From: Bartonella queenslandensis
GTDB taxonomy: Bacteria; Pseudomonadota; Alphaproteobacteria; Rhizobiales; Rhizobiaceae
Assembly (NCBI RefSeq): GCF_018155095.1
Contig: NZ_NAAI01000006.1
Location: 62,001 to 126,000 of the forward strand
DNA: 64,000 nt
Direction: 5' to 3'
Shown one piece after another: positions 19,602 through 28,358 of the stretch. Position numbers and translations under genes: made by a program. How positions within the stretch are numbered: position 1 is the first letter of the stretch; each line of letters opens with the position of its first letter. The notes beneath the pieces were generated by a model, which saw only the letters and a list, made by a program, of their open reading frames with translations, was not told the DNA's origin and searched no databases.

Positions 19602-19989
19602 ATGAACAAGATCATCATAACAACATTACTACTTTGCACTGGAATTATCGCTGCTGGCTGTGAAAAAACCTACAGCGTCGCAGAATTTAAAAAAAGATAA
19701 AAATTTGTTGGAAGAGTGGGATGCTAAATGTGGATTTGCAGGAACTTCAAAAAATTGTGAAAATCTAAGATTAGCATTTTTAGAACTTGATAAGGAACGT
19801 CAGGCACAAGCAGAAGAAAGAGCGCGTCAAGCGGAAGAGAACAATCGCAAAAGAGATGAAGAATTTATGGCTGAACAAAAGGCTTGGATTGAAAAAATGA
19901 GAGCAGAGACTCAAAAAAAATTAGCTGAACAAGAAGCAAAACGACGCGCTGAAGAAGAACAAAAAGCCAAACAACAAAATAACGATTAA
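19602..19989 (+). pseudogene. eexN: EexN-like entry-exclusion lipoprotein, copy 1, frameshifted
   Basis: The product starts MNKIIITTLLLCTGIIAAGC with a lipobox and EKTYSVAEFKK, then hits a stop because an A7 run (19,689-19,695) replaces the A6 of the other copies. The rest (LLEEWDAKCGFAGTSKNCENL and a charged helix) is open in the shifted frame to 19,989. Otherwise it is as conserved as the intact copies, so the lesion is recent or bypassed by slippage. It stands directly after virB5. Confidence 0.8.
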
Positions 19990-20025
19990 ATTATAAAAAC
20001 ACACACTGAATAGTGGAGCATCTAA

Positions 20026-20247
20026 ATGGCAATAATAACCAAAGGCGTATTTACTACTATAGAAAGTACGTCGATAGCCCCACTTACAGGACCAATGGGT
20101 AAAACCCCCGTATATCGCTATTGCGCTTTAGCTGTTCACCTTAAAAAGCTTTGTGCGCTTTATAATAAATTTATGGCAACATTATGTCTGTCACCTCAAT
20201 TTATCATCACTGGTTGTGAAACAACCGATAACACAAGCAGAATTTAA
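20026..20247 (+). pseudogene. Truncated virB6 N-terminus fused to eexN remnant, copy 1
   Basis: The 73-codon frame MAIITKGVFTTIESTSIAPL...LKKLCALYNKFMATLC aligns with the first 55 or so residues of the full VirB6 at 22,037 and then switches to FIITGCETTDNTSRI, a decayed version of the EexN lipobox region (ITAGCEKTYSVAEF). It keeps a ribosome site and an open frame. It may be a small protein or only debris of unequal recombination. Confidence 0.6.
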
Positions 20248-20295
20248 AGATTGTGCTCAAACTTCAAAAACTGAAAAGAAGAAGGAGAAATATCG

Positions 20296-20682
20296 ATGAA
20301 TAAAGTTCTTATAACAGCATTACTGCTTTGCACGGGGCTCATCGCAGCTGGCTGTGAAAAAACCTATAGCGTCGCAGAATTTAAAAAAGATGAAAAATTG
20401 CGCCTAGAATGGGATGCTAAATGTGGATTTGCAGGAACTTCAAAAAATTGTGAAAACATGCGGTTAGCATTTTTAGAACTTGAAAAAGAATATGATGCAG
20501 AAGCTGAAGAAAGAGTGCGTAGAGATGACGAACGTATTCGTATATCAATGGAAAAAGCTAAAGCTGAACAAGACGCTAGGATGAAAAAAATGGACGCTGA
20601 AACTCAAAAAATACTCGAAGAACAAAGAGAAAGAGAACGCGCTGCAGAAGAACGAAGAGCAAAAGAACAAAATAACGACTAA
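20296..20682 (+). CDS. eexN: EexN-like entry-exclusion lipoprotein, copy 2
   Basis: The 128-residue lipoprotein has a signal peptide with lipobox (LLLCTGLIAAGC), the conserved EexN core (CEKTYSVAEFKKDEKLRLEWDAKCGFAGTS...NCENMRLAFLELEKEY) with three Cys, and a highly charged Glu/Lys/Arg helix to the end. EexN-family proteins of IncN/IncX-type plasmids block redundant transfer into a cell that already has the same system. The place between virB5 and virB6 equals that of eex in pKM101. Start is preceded by GAAGAAGGAGAAA. Confidence 0.8.
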   Translation: MNKVLITALLLCTGLIAAGCEKTYSVAEFKKDEKLRLEWDAKCGFAGTSKNCENMRLAFLELEKEYDAEAEERVRRDDERIRISMEKAKAEQDARMKKMDAETQKILEEQRERERAAEERRAKEQNND

Positions 20683-20719
20683 ATTAATAAAAACACACAA
20701 TGAATAGCGGAGCATCTCA

Positions 20720-20941
20720 ATGGCAATAGAAACCAAAGACGTATTTACTGATATAGATGATATGTTGATGGAGCCTCTTACAAAAACAATGGATAAAACC
20801 ATTGCCTCTCGCTATTGCGTTTTAGCTGCTCAACTTAAAAAGCTTCGCTCATTCTATAATAAATTTATGGCAACATTATGTCTGTCACCTCAATTTATCA
20901 TCACTGGTTGTGGAACAACCGATAACACAAGCAGAATTTAA
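20720..20941 (+). pseudogene. Truncated virB6 N-terminus fused to eexN remnant, copy 2
   Basis: A 73-codon frame (MAIETKDVFTDIDDMLMEPL...FIITGCGTTDNTSRI) of the same chimeric build as the piece at 20,026. It repeats with a period of 694 bp from that copy, showing that a unit of eexN plus fragment was duplicated in tandem. Confidence 0.6.
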
Positions 20942-20989
20942 AGATTGTGCTCAAACTTCAAAAACTGAAAGGAAGAAGGGGAAATATCT

Positions 20990-21343
20990 ATGAATAAAGT
21001 TCTCATAACAACATTGCTTCTTTGCACTGGAATTATCACAGCTGGATGTGAAAAAACCTACAGCGTCGCAGAATTTAAAAAAGATAAAAATTTGCGCTTA
21101 GAGTGGGATGCTAAATGTGGATTTGCAGGAACTTCAAAAAATTGTGAAAACATGCGGTTAGCATTTTTAGAACTTCAGAAAGAGTATGAAGCAAAAGCAG
21201 CAGAAAGAAGTCGTAAAATTGACGAAGAAAATCGCAAATCAATGGAAAAATTGAAAGCTCAAATGAGGGACGATCTTGAAAAAAGGAAAGCTGAACTAGA
21301 AGCAAAAGAGCGCGCGGAAGAAGAACAACAGAATAATAATTAA
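20990..21343 (+). CDS. eexN: EexN-like entry-exclusion lipoprotein, copy 3
   Basis: This 117-residue copy has the same lipobox and 60-residue core as copy 2, but the charged tail after AFLELQKEYEAKAAERSR is different in length and sequence (ending KAELEAKERAEEEQ). The core is constant and the tail varies between copies, which suggests selection or recombination acting on the tail. It would be anchored in a membrane through the lipidated Cys. Confidence 0.8.
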   Translation: MNKVLITTLLLCTGIITAGCEKTYSVAEFKKDKNLRLEWDAKCGFAGTSKNCENMRLAFLELQKEYEAKAAERSRKIDEENRKSMEKLKAQMRDDLEKRKAELEAKERAEEEQQNNN

Positions 21344-27110: not shown

Positions 27111-27177
27111 AAAAAACGATACCCTCCCCTCTCTTATGCCAATAGAGATTTTTTAAGAGCACGATTAACGGCTAGAT

Positions 27178-27358
27178 ATGAAGAAAACTTGCAGTGTAGC
27201 AGAATTTAAAAAAGATCCAAAATTGATGAAAAATTTCAAGCTGAAATGAAAACCGAGATTGAAAGAATGAGAGCTAAGGCTAAACAATAGAAGCCGAACA
27301 AGAAGCAAAACAACAAACTGAAGAAGAACGAAGAGCAAAAGAACAAAATAACGACTAA
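27178..27358 (+). pseudogene. EexN relic after virB11
   Basis: The sequence begins ATGAAGAAAACTTGCAGTGT and matches the EexN core (CSVAEFKKDPKLM), then is shortened and frameshifted; its last 60 bp match the 3' end of copy 2 (EERRAKEQNND). The signal peptide region is missing. It shows that the eexN unit was also copied to the end of the operon. Confidence 0.7.
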
Positions 27359-27395
27359 ATTAATAAAAACACACAATGAATAGCGGAGTATCTAA

Positions 27396-27608
27396 ATGGA
27401 AATAGAAACCAAAGGCATATCCACTACTATAGAAAGTACCTCGATGCCCCCACTTACAGGATCAACGGGTAAAACCACCGCATATCACTATTGCGCTTTA
27501 GCTGCTCAACTTAAAGAGCTCTGTATAATTTATAATACATTTATGGCAAATGTCTGTGCCCTAGATTTATCATCACTGGTTGTAAAACAACCGATAACAC
27601 AAGCATAA
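27396..27608 (+). pseudogene. Truncated virB6 N-terminus, copy 4
   Basis: A 70-codon frame (MEIETKGISTTIESTSMPPL...LKELCIIYNTFMANVC) is most like the copy at 20,026. A small deletion changes the frame of the eexN-derived end, so the lipobox-like tail is lost here (VVKQPITQA). Confidence 0.6.
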
Positions 27609-27656
27609 TTTAAAGATTGTGCTTAAACCTTAAAAAACTGAAAGGGGAAATATCCT

Positions 27657-28079
27657 ATGAATAAAGTTTTCATAACAACATTGCTGCTTTGCACAGGACT
27701 TATCACAGTTGGTTGTGAAAAAACTTATAGCGTCGCAGAATTTAAAAAAAATCCACAGTTGATGGAAGAATGGGATGCGAAATGTGGATTCTCAGGAACT
27801 GCCAAAAATTGTGAAAACCTAAGGTTAGCAGGGCTTGAACTTGAAAAGGAATATGAAGCAAAAGCTGAAGAAAGAGCACGTGCACGCGAAGAAGAAAATC
27901 GTAAGGCAATGGAAAGATTTAAAGCCGAAATGGAAGCTGACCATAAAAGAAGGCAAGCTGCATATGAAGAAATAAAAGCTGAAAATGAAAAAAGAGAAGC
28001 TGAAGAAAAAGCAAAAGAACAAGCCGAAAGAGAAGCAGAAGAGCGTGCTAAAGCTAAACAAAAACAGGATAATAATTGA
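27657..28079 (+). CDS. eexN: EexN-like entry-exclusion lipoprotein, copy 5
   Basis: The largest copy, 140 residues: lipobox LLLCTGLITVGC, core EKTYSVAEFKKNPQLMEEWDAKCGFSGTAKNCENLRLAGLELEKEY, and the longest charged helical tail (about 75 residues of Glu, Lys, Arg, Ala). It is more divergent in the core than copies 1-4 and is the only one outside virB2-virB11. It has its own ribosome site (GAAAGGGGAAA). Confidence 0.78.
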   Translation: MNKVFITTLLLCTGLITVGCEKTYSVAEFKKNPQLMEEWDAKCGFSGTAKNCENLRLAGLELEKEYEAKAEERARAREEENRKAMERFKAEMEADHKRRQAAYEEIKAENEKREAEEKAKEQAEREAEERAKAKQKQDNN

Positions 28080-28111
28080 ATCAGAAATGATCATATTTGA
28101 TAGAATGGACG

Positions 28112-28358
28112 TGCAATAACATTCGACAAAATAACTTACGGGTTTGTGCTAAGGGGGTGAGGTTAGGTGATGGGTTACCTTGCGGACTTTAGCTTTATAG
28201 AGCGTAATTTAACGGACCCTATCATAAAAATAATGAATGAAAACATTAAAGAACTTTCATCAGGTTTAAGTGCTCCGCTTAAAGCGTCTTGTACAATCTA
28301 CATTGCATTACAGCATTCAAAATTTCTTAAAGCTCAAGCACCCATGAGAACATCATGA
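28112..28358 (+). pseudogene. Truncated virB6 N-terminus, copy 5, split by a repeat insertion
   Basis: Bases 28,100-28,138 match the start region of virB6 (22,020-22,060), then a 48-bp foreign repeat (28,139-28,186) interrupts, and virB6-like sequence resumes (IMNENIKELSSGLSAPLKASCTIYIAL), better preserved relative to true virB6 than the other fragments. It ends inside the last codons of glmM, which marks the right edge of the T4SS island. Confidence 0.7.
28139..28186 (-). repeat. Single inverted copy of the ~44-bp repeat
   Basis: This segment is the reverse complement of units in the array at 29,957-30,217 (GCACAAACCCG; CCGCAAGGTAACCCATCACC). It lies inside a virB6 fragment, so the repeat was inserted there. 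Confidence 0.8.

What the first reader, a model, noticed from the sequence alone, without database searches (positions are those of the whole stretch)
19602..28358. Amplified entry-exclusion/VirB6-fragment modules at both ends of a VirB secretion operon
Five recognisable EexN lipoprotein genes (copy 1 frameshifted) plus one relic alternate with five N-terminal virB6 fragments around a single complete virB6. The internal units have periods of 694, 694 and 650 bp. The lipidated N-terminal core of EexN is almost constant while the charged C-terminal helix differs in every copy. In known plasmids entry-exclusion proteins recognise a donor VirB6/TraG-type protein, so co-duplication of the exclusion gene and the N-terminus of its potential target suggests a diversification cassette, comparable in logic to the amplified trwL and trwJ-trwH genes of the Bartonella Trw system.
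Basis: partly seen in the sequence, partly recalled or inferred. Interest (0 to 1): 0.85.

Follow-up and report, generated by a model that had tools for sequence, protein, structure and literature searches.

The report
Library of conjugation-blocking lipoprotein genes
A Bartonella chromosome carries several different versions of a gene whose relatives block incoming DNA transfer; one version appears matched to its own transfer machine and the others to machines of other Bartonella species, which suggests a stored collection of protections against neighbours' transfer systems.

Summary
Confirmed, and larger than reported. The operon is a Vbh-type (conjugation-derived) T4SS. It holds four intact EexN genes, one frameshifted copy and one relic. 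Sixteen Bartonella arrays give 77 intact copies (3-7 each); 72 of 77 have their closest relative in another genome. The virB6 pieces look like passengers: typically virB6 codons 1-51 fused to a decayed eexN start.

The new result is pairing. VirB6 falls into discrete types (76-97% within, 48-67% between). The variable part of the EexN next to virB6 follows VirB6 (Mantel r=0.72, 0 of 5000 shuffles, 15 operons; 8 further operons r=0.75, 11 of 5000). VirB4, B5 and B7-B11 do not (r -0.08 to 0.21), nor does a random other copy (mean r=0.07). virB6 is replaced inside operons that are 94-98% identical around it. Non-adjacent copies often resemble the virB6-adjacent EexN of other genomes (31 of 62 at >=70%; 3 of 3 in the window, 80-96%).

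Best reading: an array of entry-exclusion specificities, one self and several non-self. The covariation points to VirB6 as target of EexN, which is stated to be unknown for IncN. Exclusion itself is untested.

The parts
15758..19577 (+). virB2, virB3, virB4, virB5 of the Vbh-type operon (15758-16105, 16130-16453, 16453-18813, 18777-19577)
   Evidence: VirB2, B3, B4 80%, 91% and 97% identical to plasmid pBGR3; VirB5 PF07996 E 1.7e-26; all open
19602..19989 (+). eexN copy 1, frameshifted at an A-run near codon 30; two pieces 19602-19700 and 19678-19989
20026..20247 (+). chimeric leftover ORF: virB6 codons 1-51 fused to decayed eexN 5' end
   Evidence: VirB6-N profile E 1.3e-4; tail matches eexN
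20296..20682 (+). eexN copy 2, intact; variable part 96% identical to the virB6-adjacent EexN of B. queenslandensis (L042)
20720..20941 (+). chimeric virB6N/eexN leftover ORF
   Evidence: VirB6-N profile E 6e-10; tail seen by alignment, no BLAST match
20990..21343 (+). eexN copy 3, intact; variable part 89% identical to the virB6-adjacent EexN of B. massiliensis (L051)
21370..21591 (+). chimeric virB6N/eexN leftover ORF
   Evidence: VirB6-N profile E 2.1e-11; tail matches eexN
21640..21990 (+). eexN copy 4, intact, next to virB6: the presumed self allele (type T3)
   Evidence: covaries with VirB6; groups with L083 and L053 (86/89)
22037..22975 (+). virB6, complete, type T3; presumed exclusion target
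   Evidence: PF04610 E 2.5e-39; highest dN of ten components; related to TrwI 7o3v, E 3e-17
22983..27110 (+). virB7 (22983-23270), virB8 (23252-23938), virB9 (23941-24792), virB10 (24827-26014), virB11 (26058-27110)
   Evidence: all open
27178..27355 (+). relic of an eexN gene
   Evidence: repeat families D5 and D7; no full-length open frame listed
27396..27608 (+). leftover ORF like the internal virB6N/eexN chimeras
   Evidence: 62-64% nt identity to the internal units
28167..28330 (+). virB6 N-terminal remnant overlapped at its start by a 44-bp repeat and running up to the 3' end of glmM
28334..29692 (-). glmM, chromosomal neighbour at the right edge of the island

Best explanation
The locus is a chromosomal Vbh T4SS island, probably unable to transfer itself, whose eexN array works as a set of entry-exclusion specificities. 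The eexN next to virB6 is the self allele, matched to the resident VirB6. The other copies are non-self alleles matched to VirB6 types of other Vbh systems, so a cell carrying the array would refuse DNA (and perhaps VbhT-like toxin) arriving through several kinds of Vbh machine. The array grows when an eexN-virB6 block is exchanged or a unit is duplicated, with the alike eexN 5' ends as recombination anchors, while older eexN genes stay behind and displaced virB6 shrinks to a 5' stub. Shown: arrays, shared allele pool, VirB6 typing, EexN-VirB6 covariation, virB6 replacement, no match to the plasmid TraA relaxase and no TraG homologue other than VirD4 in this assembly. Inferred: that EexN meets VirB6 of a donor, that each copy is expressed and excludes, that breadth of protection is what is selected, and the growth steps.
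For: Family: NF033894. Arrays: 16 arrays, 77 intact copies, 72 with closest relative in another genome; signal region more alike within arrays (3 points of nt identity, 0 of 1000 shuffles), core and tail not (829 and 770 of 1000). Covariation: VirB6 vs adjacent EexN r=0.716, 0 of 5000; B4, B5, B7-B11 r -0.08 to 0.21; penultimate copy 0.26, 87 of 2000; random non-adjacent copy mean 0.07, maximum 0.59 of 1000 draws. Eight further operons r=0.75, 11 of 5000; the four with typeable VirB6 carry the predicted EexN type. Trees of VirB6 and adjacent EexN both hold groups T1-T3, VirB8 mixes them. Replacement: window vs B. tribocorum L103 B3 98, B4 95, B7 98, B9 96, B11 95% nt but B6 69% (B5 85, B2 91); conversely L098 vs L099 B6 97% with B7-B11 85-90%. 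VirB6 dN 0.295 vs 0.024-0.140. 31 of 62 non-adjacent copies reach >=70% with one of up to 28 foreign virB6-adjacent EexN. No TraA match, only TraG homologue VirD4-like at 51%.
Against: No mating or binding data. Covariation can partly reflect linkage of neighbours; VirB2 and VirB3 were not compared, and VirB7 covaries weakly with VirB6 itself (r 0.23, 49 of 2000). The replication leans on three T1-like operons, and by plain nearest type 5 of 8 agree. Most matched VirB6 types are seen on operons that are not known plasmids; plasmid VirB6 in hand are 45-60% like them and few array alleles resemble plasmid EexN (L063_1 73%, L074_2 56%; L049_4 core 81-84%). Avoidance of the own type is only suggestive: 3 of 40 vs 8.4 expected, 78 of 5000; 1 of 58 vs 3.4 expected. 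Nearest-neighbour identity within arrays is not lower than in equal-sized samples of other arrays (0.555 vs 0.575, P 0.13). 31 of 62 copies have no partner at >=70%, including the short-tail first-position types. No dN/dS above 1 (tail 0.53-0.61). Some units pair an EexN of one type with a virB6 stub of another (e.g. L051_6, L098_3, L043_3). The window also holds a MobA/VirD2-like relaxase domain of another kind, so mobilisation is not wholly excluded.
Confidence: 0.57

Rival explanations
1. Linkage only: eexN and virB6 move together because they are neighbours; the other eexN copies are tolerated debris of tandem duplication in a decaying conjugation island and do nothing.
For: Chromosomal Vbh islands are described as deteriorating (PMC5675462 section 6; PMC3610622 passages). 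Copy 1 is frameshifted, one is a relic, L070 is decayed throughout. The virB6 stubs look like passengers.
Against: virB7, directly after virB6, and virB5, before the array, do not covary with EexN (r 0.21, 134 of 2000; r 0.12, 359 of 2000). The EexN tail follows VirB6 residues 121-312 (r 0.62-0.74) better than the nearest 1-30 (0.48). Besides 77 intact copies the 16 arrays show two frameshifted, one with an in-frame stop, one truncated and two cut by contig ends; signal dN/dS 0.13-0.15, core 0.26-0.39. All of virB2-B11 are open in 12 of 17 operons examined, virB4 dN/dS 0.04.
Confidence: 0.27
2. Surface or periplasmic lipoprotein family used for host interaction or antigenic variation, comparable to the amplified TrwL/TrwJ pilus parts.
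For: Pathogen genus with amplified T4SS surface proteins (PMC6519360 passages); variable charged tails.
Against: Variation tracks VirB6 (an inner-membrane component, recalled) and not VirB5; single-copy homologues sit in the same place on conjugative plasmids.
Confidence: 0.06
3. Dosage or assembly role: multiple EexN tune the resident VirB6, and the extra copies mainly raise dose.
For: Dose dependence of exclusion and a donor role are reported for TrbK of pKPC_UVA01 (PMC8923210 passages).
Against: Copies in an array are as different from each other in core and tail as copies from different genomes; 1 of 58 non-adjacent copies is >=70% identical to its own virB6-adjacent copy.
Confidence: 0.1

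Closest known systems
EexN / Eex of IncN plasmids (NCBIfam NF033894), gene between virB5 and virB6
   Same: Family over cut-off for four copies; same gene position, as stated for IncN in PMC8923210 (passage) and seen on pBGR3 and pTT0105
   Different: 3-7 intact alleles per array instead of one; here without plasmid-type relaxase and T4CP. The IncN exclusion target is stated to be unknown (PMC11493245 introduction passage)
TraG/Eex of SXT-R391, TraG/EexC of IncC, TraG/TraS of F
   Same: Exclusion gene next to a VirB6 homologue, exclusion groups, recipient factor paired with donor VirB6 homologue (PMC11493245 passages)
   Different: One such exclusion gene per element; for TraS and SXT Eex the interacting regions are stated to be cytoplasmic, whereas EexN is a lipoprotein by family
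Orphan surface-exclusion factors (Sfx) on integrative mobilizable elements
   Same: Exclusion gene kept without its own donor target, proposed as defence (PMC11493245 passages)
   Different: Target TraN; no array described in the passages read
rAID arrays of orphan T6SS immunity genes in Bacteroidales
   Same: Array of divergent orphan immunity genes against neighbours' effectors (PMC12247911 abstract)
   Different: Protects against T6SS toxins, not against DNA entry
Bartonella Trw T4SS with multiple TrwL/TrwJ variants
   Same: Amplification and diversification of T4SS genes in Bartonella (PMC6519360 passages)
   Different: Amplified genes there are pilus subunits exposed to erythrocytes
Vbh plasmids (pBGR3, pVbh) and chromosomal Vbh/Vbl islands
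   Same: Same operon; VirB4 97% and VirB11 94% identical to pBGR3
   Different: Islands treated in print as vestiges or speculated to promote biofilm (PMC5675462 discussion passage); 'eex' does not occur in that main text

Membership tests
EexN family lipoprotein (NF033894) | profile score over curated cut-off | tested here: met
   57-60 bits vs cut-off 33 for four intact copies; 21 bits for the downstream piece of copy 1
EexN family lipoprotein (NF033894) | lipobox cysteine after an N-terminal signal | tested here: met
   invariant G19, C20, E21 in an alignment of 40 copies; no signal-peptide program was run
EexN family lipoprotein (NF033894) | gene between virB5 and virB6 of a conjugative-type operon | tested here: met
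   copy 5 lies after virB11 and does not meet it
Entry exclusion system (functional) | lowers entry of a related conjugative element into the cell that carries it | not testable with these tools
   needs matings
Entry exclusion system (functional) | specific donor target, often VirB6/TraG-like | tested here: inconclusive
   covariation with VirB6 and not with the seven other components compared is indirect
Vbh conjugative T4SS | virB2-B11 set close to plasmid Vbh | tested here: met
Vbh conjugative T4SS | own relaxase (TraA) and coupling protein (TraG) | tested here: not met
   no TraA match in the assembly (the same query matches in 17 of 21 other genomes); only TraG homologue is VirD4-like at 51%

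The most novel reading that the evidence does not exclude
A heritable, recombination-built library of entry-exclusion specificities: Bartonella chromosomes accumulate the exclusion genes of successive or foreign VirB6 types, keep them in islands that cannot transfer themselves, and so are protected against several conjugation machines at once. VirB6 type and EexN form a compatibility system exchanged between species as a cassette, and VirB6 is the unknown donor target of IncN-type EexN.
Probability: 0.45. Interest if true: 0.88.

Novelty: new variant of a known kind. Interest (0 to 1): 0.78.

Why it matters
The donor target of IncN, IncW and IncP exclusion is stated to be unknown (PMC11493245 introduction passage). 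These arrays are a natural covariation experiment that singles out VirB6 among the eight components compared, and point to VirB6 residues 121-312 and the EexN core and tail. In the genomes sampled outside Bartonella, 21 of the 27 with an EexN match have just one.

Tried and rejected
Rejected: VirB/VirD4 effector operon (another contig holds it). Rejected: virB6 stubs as functional half of the cassette, though 28 of 33 stay open over 45 codons and their dN/dS intervals do not settle it. Rejected: position-by-position vertical inheritance of the whole array; best matches lie at different positions (e.g. L083_2 with L091_6, L098_4 with L077_3 after virB11), only the short-tail type at the first position being steady by eye (no test run). 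Weakened: avoidance of own type. The first count (3 of 58) left the own operon out of the comparison and was biased; the fairer count is weaker. A nearest-neighbour comparison within and between arrays was not significant. In one search the row 'full VirB6 T1 all' compared unaligned sequences and is not used. EexN has no solved relative by sequence (one hit at E 0.62). Not done: expression data, promoter scan, signal-peptide prediction.

Rows dropped: L044, L045, L046, L048, L052, L054 and L055 lie on contigs of the same length as G-handle loci and gave the same copies, so they were counted once (two L055 spacers remain in the 41). L070, L079 and L087 were left out of the 77-copy statistics, as were partial copies and one copy of L078 cut by a contig end. 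VirB6 of L070 and L079 was not taken as open. Of the stubs, 20 of 33 entered the dN/dS count. In one search, 15 loci were given of those returned, the rest being operons already used, plasmid-type or VirB/D4-type; one (L174) had no open VirB6 and six were identical to operons already used. L085 and L093 are called plasmid-like only from VirB5 and VirB6 identity.

Paper searches for EexN arrays in Bartonella: (EexN with Bartonella: 0 papers); the library holds open-licence papers only.
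Full report
WHAT IS THERE. The window is Bartonella sequence (G000, contig 6; relatives named). Between virB5 (18777-19577) and virB6 (22037-22975) lie eexN copies at 19602 (frameshifted), 20296, 20990 and 21640; after virB11 come a relic (about 27178-27355) and a fifth copy at 27657. The four intact ones pass the EexN profile NF033894 (57-60 bits, cut-off 33). The operon is Vbh-type: VirB3, B4, B7, B9 and B11 are 89-97% identical to conjugative plasmid pBGR3, VirB8 86%, VirB2 80%, VirB10 65% and VirB6 60%. 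pBGR3 and pTT0105 carry one eexN in the same place. Left of the operon are plasmid genes, among them repC in two ORFs, a HipA-family gene and a resolvase; right of it is glmM. The assembly has no match to the plasmid TraA relaxase, and its only TraG homologue is VirD4-like and sits on another contig (51%). A short relaxase domain of another kind lies at 2839-3606. The island is therefore unlikely, though not proven unable, to transfer itself.

THE VIRB6 PIECES. Of 44 spacers between eexN genes (two duplicates left out), 28 are 280-332 nt long and 36 hold a VirB6 N-terminal match, mostly ending near codon 51; eight hold none, and those of L050 reach codon 79. The last 130 nt or so align with the eexN 5' end (alignment; 21 of 41 spacer tails match eexN by BLAST, two of them duplicates). 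In L087 all four spacers hold the virB5 3' end and three also the virB6 5' end: an independent array of virB5end-eexN-virB6start segments. Of 33 stubs 28 are open over 45 codons (shuffled letters: 5%), but they share ancestry. For 20 of them dN/dS is 0.50 in codons 32-50 (bootstrap 0.22-1.12) against 0.14 for four complete virB6 of that type, and 0.63 in codons 1-31 (0.39-1.05) against 0.62. I read them as passengers.

GENUS-WIDE ARRAYS. Of 61 genomes searched around this one 23 have EexN, all Bartonella (37 of the 61 are), with up to 12 matches each. In 385 genomes of the class 5 have a match and in 398 of the phylum 24, G000 counted in both; of the 27 others 21 have one match, the nearest to a tandem being two adjacent matches in G105, while G614 has six on three contigs. 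Sixteen Bartonella arrays gave 77 intact copies, 3-7 each. Chromosomal place is shown by glmM in view for the window, L043, L046/L099, L051, L054/L098 and L077 and by a contig of 1.8 Mb for L074; for the others it is not established, and L050 lies at a contig end without virB genes in view. Three more copies are broken, two by frameshift (window, L051) and one by an in-frame stop (L083), all at the same A-run near codon 30.

HOW THE COPIES EVOLVE. Codons 1-20 are more alike within an array than between arrays (by 3 points of nt identity; 0 of 1000 shuffles reach it); codons 35-66 and the tail are not (829 and 770 of 1000). 72 of 77 copies have their closest relative in another genome; yet nearest-neighbour identity inside the own array (0.555) is not significantly below that in equal-sized samples of other arrays (0.575, P 0.13). 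dN/dS is 0.13-0.15 in the signal, 0.26-0.39 in the core and 0.53-0.61 in the tail with tail dS 0.8-0.9: constraint that weakens towards the tail, not proven positive selection. So each array looks like a draw from a pool shared between species, with alike 5' ends that may serve as recombination anchors (inference).

VIRB6 IS TYPED AND ITS EEXN FOLLOWS. Among 11-15 operons per component VirB6 has the highest dN (0.295; the others 0.024-0.140) at similar dS (0.34-0.64), and is least conserved at residues 1-30, 121-170, 221-250 and 271-312. It forms types that are 76-97% identical within and 48-67% between. VirB6 similarity predicts similarity of the variable part (residue 35 on) of the EexN next to it: r=0.716, 0 of 5000 permutations, 15 operons. 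VirB4, B5, B7, B8, B9, B10 and B11 give r between -0.08 and 0.21 (VirB7, the highest, 134 of 2000); VirB2 and B3 were not compared; the penultimate EexN gives 0.26 (87 of 2000); VirB7 follows VirB6 itself weakly (0.23, 49 of 2000). One random non-adjacent copy per array gives mean r=0.07 over 1000 draws (maximum 0.59), and the 11 long-tail operons alone give 0.75 (0 of 5000). The EexN tail follows VirB6 residues 121-312 (0.62-0.74) better than residues 1-30 (0.48) that lie nearest in the DNA; the signal follows none. Eight operons outside the 15 give r=0.75 (11 of 5000) and 0.71 against the 15 (1 of 5000). Four of them have a VirB6 71-90% like a known type and all four carry the predicted EexN type; the other four are untyped (VirB6 54-66%), and one of these agrees by plain nearest type. 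Three T1-like operons weigh heavily in this set. Trees of VirB6 and adjacent EexN both hold T1, T2 and T3 (T2 strongly supported in both, T1 and T3 at 84-86/86-89 for EexN, T4 unresolved for EexN), while the VirB8 tree pairs the window with B. tribocorum, a T2 operon (99/96).

REPLACEMENT OF VIRB6. Window and B. tribocorum L103 are 94-98% identical in DNA in virB3, B4 and B7-B11 (virB5 85%, virB2 91%) but 69% in virB6. L067 and L083 are 97% in virB7-B9 but 69% in virB6. In the other direction L098 and L099 are 97% in virB6 and 85-90% in virB7-B11. With the covariation this says that virB6 and its eexN are exchanged between species together.

SELF AND NON-SELF COPIES. In the window the three intact copies not next to virB6 are 96%, 89% and 80% identical in their variable part to the virB6-adjacent EexN of L042 (B. 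queenslandensis), L051 (B. massiliensis) and L091, whose VirB6 types (T1, T1, T4) differ from the window's T3. Across arrays 31 of 62 such copies have a foreign partner at >=70% and 17 at >=80% (best of up to 28 comparators, no null model), while 1 of 58 resembles its own virB6-adjacent copy that closely, against 3.4 expected. A type-based count gives 3 of 40 own-type against 8.4 expected (78 of 5000 shuffles) and 6 of 58 against 11.0 without a threshold (268 of 5000): suggestive, not strong. In some units the stub confirms the pairing: L050_1 resembles the EexN of L074 (82%) and its stub the VirB6 of L074 (94%). Over 33 units stub-EexN agreement is r=0.28 (0 of 5000), but many stubs are of the T1 kind and several units disagree.

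IS THE ISLAND DEAD? Papers call chromosomal Vbh islands deteriorating (PMC5675462 section 6 and discussion passage; PMC3610622 passages; PMC6519360 passages). Here 12 of 17 operons examined have all ten virB genes open, with virB4 dN/dS 0.04. In L049 (florencae) virB3 is gone and virB4 truncated, and in L079 virB2-B4 are not found, yet 7 and 5 eexN genes are intact. That fits a recipient-side role, but most other virB genes are open there too, so the losses may be recent. Of 21 Bartonella genomes searched for plasmid TraG, 8 have a match of 81-95%, 10 only a match of 49-51%, G024 a 51% match and a 70% fragment, and G004 and G030 none.

MECHANISM. Best reading (0.57): a set of entry-exclusion specificities. 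Shown: family, arrays, pool, typing, covariation, virB6 replacement. Inferred: EexN in the recipient meets VirB6 of the donor machine and blocks entry only for its type; keeping old eexN genes after a virB6 exchange widens protection. Unsolved: the matched VirB6 types are not on the plasmids in hand (45-60% identity), so the opponents have not been seen, and the short-tail first-position eexN types have no known VirB6 partner.

NOVELTY. Entry exclusion is known; arrays of alleles and EexN-VirB6 typing were not found in the paper searches listed under Tried and rejected, which cover open-licence papers only. Nearest logic: orphan Sfx (PMC11493245 passages) and rAID orphan immunity arrays (PMC12247911 abstract). 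I file it as a new variant of a known kind.

Noticed in passing
window 29970-30189 and 28132-28194: 44-bp tandem repeats on one side of glmM with an inverted copy overlapping the last virB6 remnant on the other side, so glmM lies between inverted repeats.
   Followed up: partly
window 2-3606 (-): Parts of a second transfer system: VirB8, a CagX/VirB9 protein and a MobA/VirD2-like relaxase domain (255 aa), separate from the Vbh operon.
   Followed up: no
window 12984-14327 (-): repC matching pBGR3 RepC (45%) over nearly its whole length but lying in two ORFs, a sign of an integrated plasmid.
   Followed up: no
L079 15193-16400: After virB11, tandem repeats of the virB11 3' end (codons 264-350, about 316 bp apart), another amplified gene end in the same kind of locus.
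   Followed up: no
L051 2977-3093: A second, diverged copy of the glmM 3' end at the left side of the island, hinting that such islands integrate at glmM; not found in the window.
   Followed up: partly
window ~19690, L083 ~5428, L051 ~9390: Two frameshifts and one in-frame stop in three eexN copies all fall at the same A-run near codon 30, possibly a slippage-prone site; whether it switches in life is unknown.
   Followed up: partly
L057 9963-10536 (own genome C9:17887-18532): A second, separate eexN pair (one copy broken) about 11 kb upstream of the VirB/D4-like operon; solo or paired copies recur in other Bartonella, in L056, L061 and L062 beside a virB5-like remnant.
   Followed up: partly
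L064 8449-9523: A 55.8-kb contig with repC, VbhT and TraA matches (probably pVbh, recalled from its size) carries three eexN genes in a row, so small arrays also occur on a plasmid.
   Followed up: no
window 34178-35986 (-): Protein with many repeats of about 'KASEAADKASDAMK' ahead of a TPR-like end, next to an OmpA-family gene; long open frames also lie on the other strand.
   Followed up: no
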